A stretch of DNA of 64,000 nt from Prosthecobacter sp. (GTDB taxonomy: Bacteria; Verrucomicrobiota; Verrucomicrobiia; Verrucomicrobiales; Verrucomicrobiaceae), in contig JABARQ010000048.1 in assembly GCA_019186985.1 (NCBI GenBank), positions 1 through 64,000 on the forward strand. The letters run 5' to 3'. How positions within the stretch are numbered: the first letter of the stretch is position 1; each line of letters opens with the position of its first letter. Shown here in pieces: positions 37,481 to 44,525 of this stretch. The position numbers and the translations under genes were made by a program. The notes under the pieces are model-generated. The model saw nothing but the letters and a program-made list of their open reading frames with translations. It was not told where the DNA came from and did no database searches.

Positions 37481-39186
37481 TCAGTCAGCTCCCGGGAGAA
37501 GCGGCAAGCCGAGTTCCTTCAGGTATTGGTTATGCTCCTTGAGTGCTCTGCGCACCTCCTTCTCGATGGCCAGCAAGGTCTTGTTCGTCGCCGCCAGGTC
37601 GATCTCCTCCTCGCCCACCGCGGTGCTGATGTAGCGGGAGATGTTCAGGTTGAATTCGTTCTTTTCGATCTCGGCCATCTCCACGCGGCGGGAGTAGCGG
37701 GGCGCTTCCGTGCGGTTCTTGTAGGTGGAGATGATCCGGGCTTTGTTCTCCTCGCTGAGCGTGTTCTGGCGTTTGCCTTTCACGAGCCGAACTCAGCAAG
37801 CGGGCTGAGTGAGGCAGACAACGCACAGCGTTGGGCGCAGCCCGACTGAGCCGGGGGCGAAGGAGTCAACTCCTCGGCGGCGTTGATGAAGAGCACGTCG
37901 TCCGGCTTCTTGCACTTCTTGAGGACGAGGATGCAGACGGGGATGCCGGTGGAGTAGAAGAGATTGGCGGGCAGGCCGATGACGGTGTCGATGTGGCCGT
38001 CCTTGAGCAGCTTGGTGCGGATGCGTTCCTCAGCACCGCCACGAAAGAGCACGCCATGGGGCAGGATGATGGCCATCACGCCTTCGTCCTTCAGGTAGTG
38101 GAAGCCGTGCAGCAGGAAGGCGAAGTCGGCGGCGGACTTGGGGGCGAAGCCGTGGCTCTTGAAGCGCACGTCGTCAGCCAGGGCGTCGGTGGGTTCCCAG
38201 CGGTAGCTGAAGGGCGGGTTGGCCACGATGGCGTCGAAGCTCGGCTTCTTCGCTGGGTTCTGCTCCCGCATCATGTCCCAGTCGTTGTCGAGGGTGTCGC
38301 CGTGGAAGATTTCGAACTCCGTGTCTTTCACCTCGTGCAGCAGCATGTTCATGCGGGCGAGGTTGTAGGTGGTGATGTTCTTCTCCTGGCCGTAAATCTT
38401 GCCAATGGTCCCGCCTGCCTGGGCCACCTTCTTGCGAACGTTGAGAAGCAGGGAGCCGGAGCCGCAGGCGAAGTCGAGCACGCTCTCCAGCCGCTTCTTG
38501 GTGCCGGTCTTCGGCACCTGGCTGTCCAGCGTGACGATGGCGGAGAGGATGTCAGAAACCTGCTGCGGGGTGTAGAACTCGCCCGCCTTCTTGCCGGACC
38601 CGGCGGCGAACTGGCCGATCAGGTATTCATAGGCATCGCCCAGCGCGTCGATGTCGGTGGAGAATTCCGCCAGCCCTTCGGCGATCTTCTGGATGATGGC
38701 GCAGAGCTTGGCGTTCCGGTCGGCGTAGGTCTTGCCCAGCTTGGCGGAACTCAGGTCGATCTCGGATAACAGGCCGTCAAAGGTGCTCTCGAAGGACTCT
38801 TCTTGGATGTATTTGAAGCCCGTTTGCAGCGTGTTCAGCAGCTCCGCGTTCTGGGTGCGGGCCAGGTTGGCGATGCTGTTCCAGAGGTGCCCCGGCTGGA
38901 TGACGTAATGCACCTTGCGGCGCATTTGCTTCTCGAAGGCCGGGATGTCGTCCACGTTGTTTGCATACCACAGCGCAAGCGGCACCTTGCGGGCATCACC
39001 GCCCACATCGGGGTAATCCCGGCCCAGTTCTTTCTTCGCCGCCGTCTCGTAGTTGTCAGAGAGGTAGCGCAGGAAGAGGAAGGACAGCATGTAGTCGCGG
39101 AAGTCGTCCGCATCCATGGCCCCGCGCAGTTGGTCGGCGATGCTCCAGAGCGTATTGCCCAGTTGTTTTTGATTGGTGTCGGTTAT
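37481..39186 (-). pseudogene. hsdM: Type I restriction-modification methyltransferase HsdM, disrupted
   Basis: HsdM is the N6-adenine methylase subunit of type I systems. The AdoMet motif LDFACGSGSLLLNV and catalytic NPPF (IVANPPFSY) are intact, and the N-terminal DFRDYMLSFLFLRYLSDNYE is typical. Two lesions are visible. Family homology reaches back to TDTNQKQLGNTLWSIADQ, but the codon where ATG is expected (39186-39184) is ATA, preceded by an in-frame stop; the next ATG is at 39117. An 83-bp insertion (37785-37867) after LFINAAEE shifts the frame and gives a stop at 37780. Without those 83 bp the span is exactly 541 codons, ending with NLNISRYISTA and a normal C-terminus. Confidence 0.85.
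37785..37867. mobile_element. 83-bp palindromic insertion in hsdM
   Basis: The boundaries were set by joining the flanks: bases up to 37784 and from 37868 onward give a continuous HsdM reading frame. The insert contains a perfect AACGC-ACA-GCGTT hairpin and outer arms GGCTGAGT and GACTGAGCC that pair imperfectly, so it can fold as a small cruciform. It has no coding capacity. Size, palindromy and insertion into a gene suggest a MITE or REP-like dispersed repeat. No second copy was noticed in the window, and no clean target duplication could be assigned. Confidence 0.55.
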
Positions 39187-39196
39187 TTGGATCTAC

Positions 39197-42100
39197 TTAC
39201 CCCTCTTTGCCTTCCATGATTTGCCAAACTCTCCGATAGACGCCGCCGGATGCACCCACAGCAGAGTTCCAATCTTGTTCTGACATGGCGGCTAGCCGTT
39301 GCCGAATGGCAGGCAGCGCATCTTCCCTGCGTAGATTCATGCTTCGGGCCAAAGCGGGGGCTGCTTTGCGTGGCACTCCCAGCAATCGCAGAGCGATGGC
39401 TTCATCGGTCGCGACACCATAGAACACGCGGGATGGAAGATTTGCGAGTTGGCTACGCTCCTCCTCAGGCATGCTTGATGCGGTAATTGCGAGCAGTGCA
39501 CCGAGTCCCCATGAAGAAGTCTGGGTAAGCTTGCCAAAAAGGTTCTGACCGCACTTGGTCATAGCGGTGGTATCATCCATTCCATCCTTTTTGAAATACT
39601 TCTCTGCAATGGTGGAAATCTCCTCACCATTCACCCAATCCTTGATAATGCGGGCAAGCTTGTCGCCATCAGCAGATTGGCCCCCAGTGACAGCATTCAA
39701 GTTTTCACGTAACTCTGGAACTCGAAGCAAGACCCCCATCATGTCTTGAAGCGTGCGGTCACCGGCGCGGAACAGGAGGTCACCATCCCAAGAGTCCGGC
39801 CCAAGATTCCCACGGTGCTGCATGACTGTCTTGATGCTCTGTAATGAAAACCCAGTGCTATCCACCAACTTGAGAGGCTGCCCAGGTTCGGAGAGGTAGG
39901 TGGTATAGCTCCTGATTCCCGAAAGCAATCGCTGGGCGATCCGGCTCTGCGATGAACGAAGTTTCTCAAATCCAAGCGTGCCACGCAGGACCTGTTCGAT
40001 CTGATCAGCGTAATTGGAAGGCTCTCCCATCTGGCGATAGGTGTGAGCCAGATACTGAAGAAAGCTGGACCATTCCGGTGAGTGATAAACGATCCTTCCG
40101 AGATCATCGAGGGCATCACCTGCCTTCTGAGCTAGCTGGATTAGCGCAGAGTTCAGGTCGCCTGTGTTCCTGTTGATAAAAGTCCTGCGTTCTTCCACCT
40201 GCTGTTCATTCTCGGCCACCAAGCCGACAACGCCCAATTGACCTTGGGATACCCGCCCGGCGCGTCCCGCGATATTCCAAAAATCTTCCGGGGGCATTGG
40301 AACTCCATATGGATAATGCGTCGCTGCCATCACTACCCCGCTCACTGGGAAGTTGACACCCTGAGCAATGGTCGTGGTCGCGGCCATAACGTCGAGACAG
40401 CCATTCTCGAACAACCATTCCATCAGCATGCGAACCTCCTCCGGCAATCCACCATGATGCACGCCAATCTTGTGCCCCAAGAGATCGACCAATGGGAATC
40501 CAGCGCCCAACTCCTGTTTCACATAGTCGCGGACCAGTTCAACTTCAGATGCAATCGCTGTAGAGACATCAGAGGCAGTCCTCAGTTTCTCAGCCAGAGC
40601 CCAGACGTAGTCAGGACGGCTGTGCATAGCGATAACTGGCCCTCGCCCCTTAAGTTTGTGAGCTGTAATGGCGGCCAAAGTGCCCGCGTCATTCGCTTGC
40701 GAAAGAGTGGATGCTAATGAGGACTCCTTACCAAAAGGGAATGCCTCGTTGAGGTCTATCGTATGCCGGGTGGTATGAACCGTTTTGAAGTCCAATCCAT
40801 AGTCTCGACTGCGCCCCCGCAACGGCCCGGCATCCACGGCGCTCACGATGCCAATCGCCCGGTCATTTGGCTGCCAGTCCACGCCAAGGCTGATGTCATC
40901 TGAGTTCGCACCGCCGAGCCAACGGGCCACTTCACGCGCGTTTTGGATGAACGGCGTTAGTAGAAGGAACTGCGCTTCACGGCATTCCCGGTTGATGGTC
41001 GCAAGAAGAAGTTCAAGGCGCATGCCGCGCTGTGTATCCTGAATCGTATGCGCTTCATCCACGACCACCAGCGTGAGAGGCCGTCCGATCTTCTCTTCCC
41101 AGTCCTGCTTCAGCAACAAGTCGAACTTTTCAGGCGTTGCGACAAGAATACGGAACTTTGCATCATCTCGTGATTCGCGGAGCACGCCTGCTTCGATTCC
41201 ATCGATCTCCATCGCCGGGCTGACACGCTCCACGACCAAGCCAAGCGGTTCGAAATCACGCCGAAGCTGTCTGGTGACTTGGTTCACTAGCGCACGGCTC
41301 GGAGCGAGATAGGCCACCCAGCCTTTCCGATCTTCATACTGGTTCAATGCCTGAAGCATCCGGAACTGCGCTATGAGCGTCTTGCCGCTCGACGTTGGCA
41401 GACTCACGACCACGGCCCGGCGGCTGGAGCCGAGCAATCCACGCTCCGCCAGTGTCCGACGTTGTGGCGGCAAAACATCAAACAACGCCTTGTCACCCCG
41501 ACCGCGCTTCACCAGCTCACGCACGAAATCGGTCACACGGGAGTTCACCGCACGGGTGACGGTCCAGATGGAGTTCTCGACCAATTGCGCGGCGGCACGG
41601 GCGAGCAGGCGAGTCATAGGCTCCAACTCCACCAGCCGCGCCGTTTCACATGCGGCGATGGCTCGATCAAAATGAGAATCCAAGATCTGATGAACCTGAT
41701 GATTCCCATCCACCACTCCATCCGTGATGAAGTGCGCGAGCACATCCGCTGCCTTTGAGATGTGGTAGATAGCGATCAACTCCAGTGCGGAACGCTTGGC
41801 CGACAGCGGATCAAGCGCTTGGAGGTAATCGCGCTCGAACTCCTGCTGGGAATCCCGCAGTGCCGCCACGCGCTCCAGGACAGCATCGCGATCCGTCCAG
41901 CCCTTCTTTCGCACAAGGCGCAGCCAAACATCTGTGATGGTGGCGCGGCAACGCTGGCCCCAATCGCGGGATTCAATCGCGAAGGCGGGCCACCTGCCTT
42001 CGGCATCCAATGCGCGGAGCCACCTTGCCCCATCCGCACCTCGATCCCCCAGCACGGCAAGAGTGGAAGCCCGAAGCAAGTGCACACCAGCTTCCATAGG

Positions 42101-42367
42101 CTCTACCGGAAGGGGCAGAACTCGCAACACATGGAACGCGTCCGCAGCAGCACCGCGCATGGTGGCCTCGCGATCTCGATCCTCGGAGAGACGGTCCACT
42201 TCCAAGTCCAGAACTGCGACTTCCAAAGCGGCGGCGGTTTCCTGAAGCGCATCCCCATCGAAATCTGGCACTTCGCGCGCCATTTCGCGGTAGAACTGGA
42301 TGCGGTCAGCCTCTCGCAGCGCGCTGCTGCGTTTCTCGTTGATCGAATCAAGGAGCCAGTGGTTCAT
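39197..42367 (-). CDS. Ski2-like DEAH helicase, HamB-like (Hachiman-type defence)
   Basis: This 1056-residue superfamily 2 helicase has Walker A PTSSGKT (about 322-328), motif Ia APSRALVNQV, DEAH (about 437-440, VVVDEAHTI), ATTTIAQGVNFPV and motif VI NIAGRAGRVSQG (about 700). The long N-terminal region (~300 residues) has no recognised fold. ATG 42367 overlaps the stop of the upstream nuclease gene as ATGA, marking a coupled two-gene unit. A PD-(D/E)xK protein followed by a ~1000-aa helicase is the Hachiman (HamAB) layout; AbpAB is a related alternative. It ends 10 bp before the remains of hsdM. Confidence 0.75.
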   Translation of the reverse strand: MNHWLLDSINEKRSSALREADRIQFYREMAREVPDFDGDALQETAAALEVAVLDLEVDRLSEDRDREATMRGAAADAFHVLRVLPLPVEPMEAGVHLLRASTLAVLGDRGADGARWLRALDAEGRWPAFAIESRDWGQRCRATITDVWLRLVRKKGWTDRDAVLERVAALRDSQQEFERDYLQALDPLSAKRSALELIAIYHISKAADVLAHFITDGVVDGNHQVHQILDSHFDRAIAACETARLVELEPMTRLLARAAAQLVENSIWTVTRAVNSRVTDFVRELVKRGRGDKALFDVLPPQRRTLAERGLLGSSRRAVVVSLPTSSGKTLIAQFRMLQALNQYEDRKGWVAYLAPSRALVNQVTRQLRRDFEPLGLVVERVSPAMEIDGIEAGVLRESRDDAKFRILVATPEKFDLLLKQDWEEKIGRPLTLVVVDEAHTIQDTQRGMRLELLLATINRECREAQFLLLTPFIQNAREVARWLGGANSDDISLGVDWQPNDRAIGIVSAVDAGPLRGRSRDYGLDFKTVHTTRHTIDLNEAFPFGKESSLASTLSQANDAGTLAAITAHKLKGRGPVIAMHSRPDYVWALAEKLRTASDVSTAIASEVELVRDYVKQELGAGFPLVDLLGHKIGVHHGGLPEEVRMLMEWLFENGCLDVMAATTTIAQGVNFPVSGVVMAATHYPYGVPMPPEDFWNIAGRAGRVSQGQLGVVGLVAENEQQVEERRTFINRNTGDLNSALIQLAQKAGDALDDLGRIVYHSPEWSSFLQYLAHTYRQMGEPSNYADQIEQVLRGTLGFEKLRSSQSRIAQRLLSGIRSYTTYLSEPGQPLKLVDSTGFSLQSIKTVMQHRGNLGPDSWDGDLLFRAGDRTLQDMMGVLLRVPELRENLNAVTGGQSADGDKLARIIKDWVNGEEISTIAEKYFKKDGMDDTTAMTKCGQNLFGKLTQTSSWGLGALLAITASSMPEEERSQLANLPSRVFYGVATDEAIALRLLGVPRKAAPALARSMNLRREDALPAIRQRLAAMSEQDWNSAVGASGGVYRRVWQIMEGKEG

Positions 42368-43158
42368 GACGCACCTCCTTGTCGAATGGCTGTCGGAAGA
42401 TCGCTGATCGGCCACGGAAGATAAAGCGCGAGAAGCTGGCAGTGGGTTGGAGCCTGCAAAGACCGCCCCAAGCTACGTCCGCGCGCTTGTAGGTCCTGTT
42501 CCCTAGCGTCCTTGTCGCGGATGAGAATCCCGAACAGTGTCACATCCCGGCGACTTGAATTGAAATACCTTGAGCAAGCATTGTTGAAGGAACCTTCGTG
42601 TGTTGTTCCCTTCACCCGTGGCAGCAGCCATTTGAGCAATTGGCAGATCGTGCCGAGGTTGCTTGCCAGAGCATCCAACTGGTGGCCGATTCTACCACTC
42701 CTTCCGCTCATAACCTGCGGTGGCCATTGTTCTTCGGAAGAGCACTTCACCTCGCCCAAGGCCAAACGATGCGAATCCCCGTCGCGTTGGAAGCCGACGA
42801 TGTCCGCGCCGGGCAGTGAAGCGAACGGGTTACGTTTGTCCCGTTCTGTATTCCAGGGCAGCACCACATCGTGATGCTCTTCCAAAATGGCCTCGGCCAA
42901 CGCTTCACCCACTGCCCAATCGCGTTCCTCGGGCTCATCGGCGGCGAGAACCTCTTCGAGCGCCTGATGTCCCATGCCCGTGAGGCTGAGGCCACGAAGA
43001 TGGCTGCGCAGCTCTTCACCGCCCTCAGTATCATTGAGGCGTGCGGCGACTGGTCCGCTCAGAAAGGCATTCAGCTCATCACCCGCCACGGCACGTTCGC
43101 CCTGCCACGATGTGCAACCGTGGCTGGACTGATAGGCGACCTGGGAAGGGAATGGCAT
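42364..43158 (-). CDS. PD-(D/E)xK nuclease, HamA/DUF1837-like
   Basis: This 264-residue protein has a likely restriction-type nuclease core: Glu85 in WAVGEALAE, Asp119 in LPGADIVGF and the ExK pair in LALGEVKCSSE (Glu136, Lys138). This order (E...D...ExK) and the protein size match HamA/DUF1837 proteins, whose DNase activity is released when the partner helicase senses foreign DNA. Family assignment is by motif and partner, not by search. The gene is followed by the helicase with a 4-base overlap. It starts 71 bp after the hsdR-hsdS chimera, so transcription may come from the old restriction promoter. Confidence 0.65.
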   Translation of the reverse strand: MPFPSQVAYQSSHGCTSWQGERAVAGDELNAFLSGPVAARLNDTEGGEELRSHLRGLSLTGMGHQALEEVLAADEPEERDWAVGEALAEAILEEHHDVVLPWNTERDKRNPFASLPGADIVGFQRDGDSHRLALGEVKCSSEEQWPPQVMSGRSGRIGHQLDALASNLGTICQLLKWLLPRVKGTTHEGSFNNACSRYFNSSRRDVTLFGILIRDKDAREQDLQARGRSLGRSLQAPTHCQLLALYLPWPISDLPTAIRQGGAS

Positions 43159-43229: not shown

Positions 43230-44525
43230 TCATGCCGCCACCTCCTCCGGGGATGGGAAAAGCTGCTGCATCAGGCCGCGCTTGTGGAGCTGGAGGGCGG
43301 CGTGCTTTTGCGTCTCGGCGGCGATCAGCGCTTCGAGCTGCTCCTTGTAGGTGGCCTGGCCGTTCTTGCTGCGCTGTTTGTTGCGCTTGCTGTTTTCGTC
43401 GTGGGCCAGACCGAGCTTCTGGATGGTGGTCACGATGACCTTGTCCGCATAGTCCTCGGACAGCAGACGACGAACGAGGGCGGCGGTGTTGGTGTTTTCC
43501 TCGACGCAGCCTTCCTGGAAGCGGTTGAACTCTTCGCGCGTCTGGCGGTCGAGGTCCTTGCGGTCCACGACGAACACGCATTTGTGGAGGTGATCGTTCT
43601 CCTTGAGCAGGGTGGAGGCCTTGAAGGAGGTCAGCGTCTTGCCGCTGCCGGTGGTGTGCCAGATGAAGCCGTTGCCATTGTCGTCATCAATGCACTTCAC
43701 CAGGTGCTGCACGGCATAGACCTGATAGGGCCGCATGATCAGGAGCTTCTGCTCGCTGACGATGAGCACCATGTAGCGGCTGATGGTCTTGCCGAGGGCG
43801 CATTTCTGGAGGAATCGCTCTGCGAAGGGATCGAGGTGGGTGATCTTCCTGTTATCTTCGCCTGCGAACTCATAGACGGGCAGGAAACGCTCGTCGGCAT
43901 TGAAGGCGAAGTGGCGGGCGTTGTTGTTGGCGAAGTAGTAGGTGCGGTCGCGGTTGCTGACGATGAAGAGCTGCATGAAGCAGAGCAGCGTCTTGGTGTA
44001 GCCGTTGCCGGGGTCGTTCTTGTATTCGACGATCTGCTCCATGGCCCGGCGCGGATTCACGCCGAGGGTCTTCAGCTCGATCTGCACGCAGGGCACCCCA
44101 TTGATGAGAATGAGCACATCGTAGCGGTGGTGGCCGTAATCCGTGTTGATGCGGAGCTGGTTGACGACCTCGAAGTGGTTTTTGCACCAGTCCTTAAGAT
44201 TCACCAGGGAGTAGTTCAACGGCGTGCCGTCGTCGCGCTCGAACGAATTGATGCTGCGCAGGGTCTTGGAGGCCGTGAAGACATCCGGCGTGACGATTTC
44301 ATCGAGCAGGCGGGCAAACTCCGCATCGGTGAGGCGGACGCGGTTCAAGGCCTCGAACTTCTCGCGAAAATTCTTCTCCAGCGTGGCGCGGTTGGTGATG
44401 TCCGGGCGGTATTCGTATTTCAGCCCCTGCAGCCTGGCGATGAAGGCGGACTCGATGTGGTCCTCCCGGACGCCCGATGACGGCTCATCGGAAGGCAAGG
44501 CATAGCTGGACTTGGAGGGCGGCAT
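43230..44525 (-). pseudogene. hsdR: HsdR-HsdS chimera: truncated type I restriction subunit fused to an HsdS tail
   Basis: Residues 1-398 are the N-terminal part of HsdR, the motor-nuclease of type I systems. The nuclease motif (YDVLIL Asp136, QIELKT Glu150/Lys152) and Walker A (TTGSGKT) are present, and the frame runs to NGQATYKEQLE. HsdR should then continue to the DECH helicase box, but instead residues 399-431 read ALIAAETQKHAALQLHKRGL and MQQLFPSPEE. That is the usual end of HsdS, the specificity subunit. The join at about 43331 is in frame. All helicase motifs after motif I and both target-recognition domains are lost, so restriction is not possible. Confidence 0.8.

What the first reader, a model, noticed from the sequence alone, without database searches (positions are those of the whole stretch)
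39197..43158. Intact Hachiman-like nuclease-helicase pair inside a dead type I restriction locus
A PD-(D/E)xK protein and a ~1056-aa DEAH helicase, joined by an ATGA overlap, sit between the hsdR-hsdS remnant and the disrupted hsdM. The flanking restriction genes have decayed while the pair looks complete, suggesting that it is the part under selection. The helicase N-terminal ~300 residues have no recognised fold, so this may be a divergent Hachiman/AbpAB subtype or a new two-gene system.
Basis: partly seen in the sequence, partly recalled or inferred. Interest (0 to 1): 0.8.

Follow-up and report, generated by a model that had tools for sequence, protein, structure and literature searches.

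The report
Hachiman-like defence pair in dead restriction locus
Two neighbouring genes encode a likely DNA-cutting enzyme and a DNA motor that look like a distant version of the bacterial anti-virus system Hachiman; the pair is intact here although the restriction genes around it are broken, and relatives of it turn up in many other bacteria and some archaea, often in the same kind of place.

Summary
In detail: a 264-aa PD-(D/E)xK protein and a 1056-aa DEAH helicase overlap by ATGA on the minus strand, between an hsdR-hsdS fusion remnant and a disrupted hsdM. It is not an uncatalogued system: both genes match PADLOC's unvalidated candidate PDC-M23 (325 and 1383 bits). No held paper names PDC-M23. 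What I add is its identity. The nuclease misses the HamA (DUF1837) profile, yet E85, D119, E136 and K138 are invariant in 66 sequences with HamA-like spacing, and its model is closest to HamA (Z 16.4; AbpA 12.8; next 6.0). The helicase model aligns to HamB over residues 1-1054; its 'fold-less' N-terminus corresponds to HamB's HamA-binding helical domain; HamB's C-terminal OB-like domain has no counterpart. Relatives (131 found, 80 kept) span many phyla; 39 of 85 loci have co-directional hsd genes, 46 none seen. Best reading: a Hachiman-type DNA-damage sensor coupled to a suicidal nuclease, in a sister branch that HamA profiles miss. Membership by profile fails; working like Hachiman is well supported by homology; antiphage activity is untested.

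The parts
42364..43158 (-). nuclease (PDC-M23A; HamA-fold PD-(D/E)xK; E85, D119, E136, K138), 264 aa
   Evidence: PADLOC PDLC04527 E 5.6e-98; these four residues invariant in 66 of 66; model pLDDT 91.6; HamA 8vx9_A Z 16.4
39197..42367 (-). Ski2-like SF2 helicase (PDC-M23B; HamB-like), 1056 aa
   Evidence: PADLOC PDLC04531 1383 bits, HamB1 198 bits; model pLDDT 87.3; HamB ranks 1-3 in Foldseek; 933 residues aligned, Z 29.1
42364..42367 (-). ATGA overlap of the two genes (probable translational coupling)
   Evidence: sequence; a 4-base overlap also in 51 of the 78 loci where both ORFs were called
41588..42367 (-). helicase N-terminal mostly helical part (residues 1-260), counterpart of HamB's HamA-binding NAH domain
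   Evidence: secondary structure; in the VIA table only the 3 HamB entries and one Brr2 row (6qw6, from residue 64) start before residue 258
43230..44525 (-). hsdR (to about residue 400) / hsdS (C-terminal end) fusion remnant, 431 aa
37780..39117 (-). hsdM remnant, first part, ending at a stop inside an extra stretch
37784..37869 (-). extra stretch in hsdM, absent from the 7 related HsdM proteins compared; single copy in this genome assembly
37481..37783 (-). hsdM remnant, last part, in another frame

Best explanation
The pair is an intact PDC-M23 system, a sister branch of Hachiman. The helicase (HamB-like) most likely binds the nuclease through its N-terminal helical domain, surveys DNA and holds the nuclease in check. 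When it meets aberrant DNA (free 3' ends or recombination and degradation intermediates made during phage replication), ATP hydrolysis activates the HamA-type nuclease, which degrades phage and host DNA and ends the infection together with the cell. It sits in the accessory slot of a type I restriction operon but probably does not need that operon: here the restriction genes are broken, and many relatives show no restriction genes nearby. Shown here: homology, predicted fold, active-site conservation, gene order and its recurrence. Inferred from HamAB of E. coli ECOR31 (PMC12278908): complex formation, trigger, abortive outcome.
For: PDC-M23A/B profiles. E85, D119, E136, K138 invariant in 66 of 66; spacing 34/17/2, against 34/18/2 in the reference row of 8 HamA sequences, where the same four residues are invariant. 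Profile-profile M23A vs HamA: probability 94, single-pair E 1.4e-7, active-site columns aligned. The only PDB chains the M23A profile finds up to E 10 are the two HamA chains, E 0.17 and 0.19, collinear (not significant alone). Model vs HamA 8vx9_A Z 16.4, 232 residues, rmsd 4.0; 8vxy_A 14.2; 8zue_A (residues 260-534) 12.8; next row 6.0. Helicase model: HamB ranks 1-3 in Foldseek, best E 2e-29; HamB-DNA 8vxa_A Z 29.1, 933 residues, model 1-1054 on HamB 6-1088. DEAH in 64 of 64 helicases. A helicase ORF is called next to the nuclease place in all 85 loci L024-L108.
Against: No PF08878/DUF1837 match; PADLOC HamA1 only E 0.0057. Foldseek alone gave no match at E<=0.001 for the nuclease model. HamB's C-terminal OB-like domain has no counterpart. 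By Z alone HamB (29.1, 26.4, 25.9) does not stand out from Brr2 (up to 27.4) or Hel308 (up to 26.9); only the length of the match does. The tree puts M23B on its own branch and joins long HamB to Hel308 (93/88) rather than to M23B, with long-branch warnings, so descent from HamB is not shown. I saw no antiphage or biochemical data on this family.
Confidence: 0.75

Rival explanations
1. The pair is an accessory part of the type I restriction enzyme: it acts on DNA ends made by HsdR or controls the enzyme, and is now a stranded leftover here.
For: 39 of 85 loci have co-directional hsd genes; 19 of the 45 with at least 5 kb on each side have them on both sides; hsdS is the called gene directly upstream of the nuclease in 25 of 78; HsdM lies within 20 of those 45 loci against about 1.5% expected.
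Against: 24 of the 45 show no hsd gene by my profiles; unrelated genes (AAA_13, AlbA_2, YhcG, RhuM types) occur in the same operons; the active site is fully conserved here although the restriction genes are broken, which recent decay would also allow.
Confidence: 0.12
2. A DNA-repair or recombination nuclease-helicase related to Hel308, not a defence system.
For: The helicase core is Ski2/Hel308-like.
Against: Patchy distribution: 8 of 387 genomes of the phylum, own genome included, and 0 of the 3 other same-genus genomes listed; frequent siting in restriction operons; the N-terminal domain is matched by HamB, not by Hel308 rows.
Confidence: 0.08
3. A non-functional passenger in a decaying island.
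For: Both neighbours are broken and their decay looks recent, so the pair may be next; expression was not tested.
Against: No lesion seen in 1320 codons; dN/dS 0.06-0.13 against the two closest relatives, L036 and L024.
Confidence: 0.05

Closest known systems
PADLOC PDC-M23 (PDLC04527-04532)
   Same: both genes, near full-length matches
   Different: no difference found; this is a member. The library gives no description or function for it
Hachiman HamAB (PDB 8vx9, 8vxa, 8vxy)
   Same: nuclease and helicase as adjacent genes; HamA fold with D-E(x)K site; Ski2-like helicase with matching N-terminal helical domain
   Different: no DUF1837 profile match; 11-12% identity on structural alignment of the nuclease; no counterpart of HamB residues past 1088; DEAH here, DEGH in ECOR31 HamB (PMC12278908, results part 1)
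AbpAB (PDB 8zue; chain B is named Anti-bacteriophage protein B, so chain A is taken as AbpA)
   Same: chain A residues 260-534 have the same fold (Z 12.8); chain B is a distant helicase relative (E 2e-8)
   Different: no N-terminal extra domain; active site intact, whereas Tuck et al. report it inactive in AbpA (PMC12278908, discussion read)
Hel308 / Brr2 / Pol theta helicases
   Same: helicase core and C-terminal helical part
   Different: their matches begin at about residue 260, one Brr2 row excepted; no partner nuclease of this kind (recalled)

Membership tests
PDC-M23 (PADLOC) | PDC-M23A and PDC-M23B profile matches in adjacent genes | tested here: met
   E 5.6e-98 over residues 6-260; 1383 bits over residues 2-1053
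Hachiman | HamA with DUF1837 (PF08878) | tested here: not met
   no Pfam family at E<=1; PF08878 silent in 44 of 49 genomes carrying a relative; PADLOC HamA1 E 0.0057
Hachiman | HamA nuclease fold and D-E(x)K active site | tested here: met
   Z 16.4 to 8vx9_A; residues invariant, like spacing; hhalign probability 94
Hachiman | HamB: Ski2-like SF2 helicase with DExH box | tested here: met
Hachiman | HamB N-terminal helical domain that binds HamA | tested here: met
   predicted fold only: model 1-1054 aligned to HamB 6-1088; that this part binds the nuclease is not tested
Hachiman | HamB C-terminal OB-like domain (present in ECOR31 HamB; may not define the family) | tested here: not met
   alignment ends at HamB 1088 (chain of 1139-1174 residues) and at model residue 1054 of 1056
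Hachiman | 1:1 complex, DNA-end-triggered DNA degradation, phage protection | not testable with these tools
   needs experiment
Hachiman type II | adjacent HamC (DUF3223) | not tested
   definition from PMC8565338 (passages); no DUF3223 search was made
AbpAB | N-terminal Cap4-like nuclease domain fused to an inactive HamA domain | tested here: not met
   264 aa, of which 1-261 align to HamA; active site intact

The most novel reading that the evidence does not exclude
Hachiman-type damage sensors are a recurrent built-in second stage of type I restriction: HsdR cutting of incoming DNA makes the ends that the embedded helicase senses, turning restriction into cell suicide when it is overwhelmed. 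PDC-M23 and canonical HamAB have entered this slot independently, and this very genome carries one of each.
Probability: 0.2. Interest if true: 0.75.

Novelty: new variant of a known kind. Interest (0 to 1): 0.45.

Why it matters
It gives a likely identity to an unvalidated PADLOC candidate, widens the Hachiman kind beyond what HamA profiles detect (relatives in many bacterial phyla and some archaea), and names residues to mutate. It also makes testable whether Hachiman-type sensors are tied to type I restriction functionally or only travel with it.

Tried and rejected
Rejected: AbpAB subtype (no N-terminal domain, intact active site). Rejected: a novel N-terminal fold of the helicase. Not decisive: Foldseek alone on the nuclease model gave nothing at E<=0.001; the HamA match came from the VIA second look and from profiles. 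Led nowhere: finding an empty insertion site; ligA and the secretin, which flank the locus here, are arranged differently in the same-genus stretches I compared (six stretches fetched). The extra stretch in hsdM has no second copy in this genome assembly, and a 15-base core of it is found once in the window with up to 2 mismatches. P0001 has no match in plasmid or phage records; P0002 has 10 plasmid matches at E<=1e-30, all under 60% identity. dN/dS could not single out the pair as the only selected part. No Rfam family reached its threshold in the window. The preprint that describes the PDC search is not held, so whether its authors already linked M23 to Hachiman is unknown to me.

Limits of the counts: of 131 relatives only the best 80 were kept; the embedding counts use L024-L108 (80 loci of genome contigs, 5 of viral contigs), leaving out the window and L017-L023; L042 and L056 are from one species genome. 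Hsd genes were found with profiles built from these loci, so divergent hsd genes may be missed, and many contigs end near the pair (only 45 of 85 have 5 kb on both sides). The nuclease ORF was called in 78 of 85; in the other 7 my gene caller kept an overlapping ORF, which also hides an hsdS in at least one of them (L029). The P value assumes independent loci. In one search one further comparison (HsdR with the cut L036 gene) aligned only 14 residues and was dropped. The tree used 21 of the 63 other helicases of A5 plus P0002. PF08878 by locus was run on 50 of 80 loci (49 genomes), HsdM_N on 50 of 80 (50 genomes); its per-genome counts were typed from the table into.

Papers: PMC12278908 results part 1 of 3 and discussion read, further passages; PMC12988326, PMC10855318, PMC12799240, PMC8565338 and PMC12839542 passages only; PMC11914072 nothing (one search failed). 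The others were search listings.
Full report
What is there. On the minus strand of the window, a 264-aa ORF (42364-43158) overlaps a 1056-aa ORF (39197-42367) by ATGA. Upstream lies an ORF of 431 aa that matches HsdR up to about residue 400 and an HsdS C-terminus over its last 35-40 residues; the eight closest HsdR homologues are 990-1043 aa long, so most of hsdR and nearly all of hsdS are gone. Downstream lies hsdM, split by an extra stretch of about 85 bp that carries a stop, with its tail in another frame and no ATG/GTG/TTG where relatives begin. The restriction system should not work as it stands; I saw no lesion in the pair. The genome belongs to Verrucomicrobiota by inference: contigs of unnamed 'same class' and 'same phylum' genomes have the lengths of named Coraliomargarita, Puniceicoccaceae and Kiritimatiellae contigs.

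Which family. The nuclease matches PADLOC PDC-M23A (325 bits) and the helicase PDC-M23B (1383 bits); HamB1 is the next family for the helicase (198 bits), and HamA1 is marginal for the nuclease (E 0.0057). Pfam and NCBIfam have nothing for the nuclease at E<=1. PDCs are candidates found by 'guilt-by-embedding' and described as mostly or wholly unvalidated (PMC12988326 and PMC10855318, passages). No held paper names PDC-M23.

Distribution. 8 of 387 genomes of the phylum, own genome included, match the nuclease profile. A scan of the genome-contig collection found 131 relatives and kept 80; by record title they include Pseudomonadota, Verrucomicrobiota, Chlorobiaceae, Rhodothermales, Desulfobacterales, Bryobacterales and Terriglobia, Gemmatimonadetes, Planctomycetota, Nitrospirae, Bacillota and archaea. 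Five viral contigs carry it too. A helicase ORF is called beside the nuclease place in all 85 of these loci, with a 4-base overlap in 51 of the 78 where both ORFs were called.

Context. 39 of 85 loci have co-directional hsd genes: on both sides in 23, upstream only in 15, downstream only in 1; 46 show none. Among the 45 with at least 5 kb on each side, 21 have hsd genes, 19 of them on both sides, and 24 none. Common orders are HsdM-HsdS-[pair]-HsdR (12) and HsdR-HsdS-[pair]-HsdM (6 by the script, 7 in the table, because one hsdS was missed); the window has the second. HsdM lies within the locus in 20 of 45, against about 1.5% expected from 146 HsdM_N matches in 195.3 Mb of 50 of the same genomes. 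Embedding is real and recurrent, but not obligatory.

Active site. In 66 nucleases E85, D119, E136 and K138 are invariant, as are W81, G84, P101, W102, D107, Q160, R214 and D222 among others. Eight HamA-profile proteins share E, D, E, K with nearly equal spacing; profile-profile comparison aligns the two families with probability 94 and a single-pair E of 1.4e-7. R106 is kept in 65 of 66, and position 109 is R or K in 65 of 66; Tuck et al. report an (R/K)xx(R/K) motif at the HamA-HamB interface and place a HamB-binding loop at HamA 102-117 and a helix-loop-helix at 30-63 (PMC12278908, results part 1); that residues 106-109, the loop 96-118 and helices 27-57 here are their counterparts is my inference.

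Folds. The nuclease model (pLDDT 91.6) is closest to HamA (Z 16.4, 232 of 264 residues, rmsd 4.0), then to the second HamA entry (14.2) and to 8zue chain A, residues 260-534 (12.8); the next row is FokI at 6.0. Foldseek alone had no match at E<=0.001. The helicase model (pLDDT 87.3) has HamB as its three best Foldseek matches (E 2e-29 to 1.7e-26; TM by query 0.72-0.78, against at most 0.52 in the other rows shown). With VIA, HamB-DNA is first (Z 29.1, 933 residues), and the three HamB entries are matched from residue 1, whereas the Brr2, Hel308 and Pol theta rows start near residue 260 (one Brr2 row, 6qw6, at 64). Z alone does not separate HamB (29.1, 26.4, 25.9) from Brr2 (up to 27.4) or Hel308 (up to 26.9); length of match does. 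HamB past residue 1088 has no counterpart.

Phylogeny. In a tree of 37 helicases M23B (22 rows) is one side of a branch (100/100), apart from long HamB, shorter HamB-type helicases and Hel308; long HamB joins Hel308 at 93/88, with long-branch warnings. This does not show descent from HamB; it shows a separate branch of the same broad group.

Selection. dN/dS of the nuclease is 0.08-0.13 (5 of 7 comparisons had finite dS) and of the helicase 0.06-0.07 (4 of 7, L036 included); for HsdM's first part 0.06-0.24 (5 of 5), its tail 0.18-0.47 (2 of 4), HsdR 0.07-0.27 (5 of 5). The pair is under purifying selection across relatives; the hsd fragments have mostly kept such a signature too, so their decay looks recent and the contrast is weak evidence.

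Mechanism. By analogy with HamAB, whose helicase constrains the nuclease and triggers it on damaged DNA, leading to degradation of all DNA in the cell (PMC12278908), I expect the same here. Homology, predicted fold and site conservation are shown; complex, trigger and outcome are inferred.

A second pair. The same genome has, on another contig, a profile-positive HamA (PF08878 E 4.7e-12; PADLOC HamA1 4.5e-80) and HamB1, set between HsdS and HsdR. Of 14 stretches around HamA-profile genes, 3 showed an HsdR or HsdS gene in the same direction by my profiles. The slot is thus used by both branches, which is the basis of the bolder reading in the section on the most novel reading.

Verdict. A real, apparently intact member of a catalogued but unexplained candidate family, here identified as a Hachiman-like branch. 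New variant of a known kind; interest moderate.

Noticed in passing
L120:2262-12579 (own genome, contig C16, about 134261-144578): A canonical HamA-HamB pair lies between an HsdS and an HsdR gene; upstream are a 337-aa and a 265-aa protein without Pfam match, the latter with a weak LmuA-profile match (E 8.7e-5), perhaps protease-like.
   Followed up: partly
window 37784-37869: Extra stretch in hsdM with an imperfect inverted repeat (by eye; the repeat search failed and was not repeated); single copy in the genome assembly; origin unexplained.
   Followed up: partly
L022:10032-11108: A relative whose nuclease diverges after about residue 200 and has no helicase called in the 20-kb stretch: a broken or rearranged copy.
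   Followed up: no
L020:11320-14148, L022:6863-9688, L105:4794-7364: A recurrent four-gene set upstream of the nuclease in three loci; two of its L020 proteins are Amidoligase_2 and GATase_6; no PADLOC match for the four L022 proteins.
   Followed up: partly
L028, L029, L031, L032, L035, L052 (just after the helicase): A protein of the AAA_13 cluster follows the helicase in six R-S-[pair]-M operons; other accessory genes in the loci are of AlbA_2, YhcG (DUF1016) and RhuM types.
   Followed up: partly
L104-L108 (viral contigs): Five IMG/VR contigs carry the pair; whether they are true proviruses was not checked.
   Followed up: no
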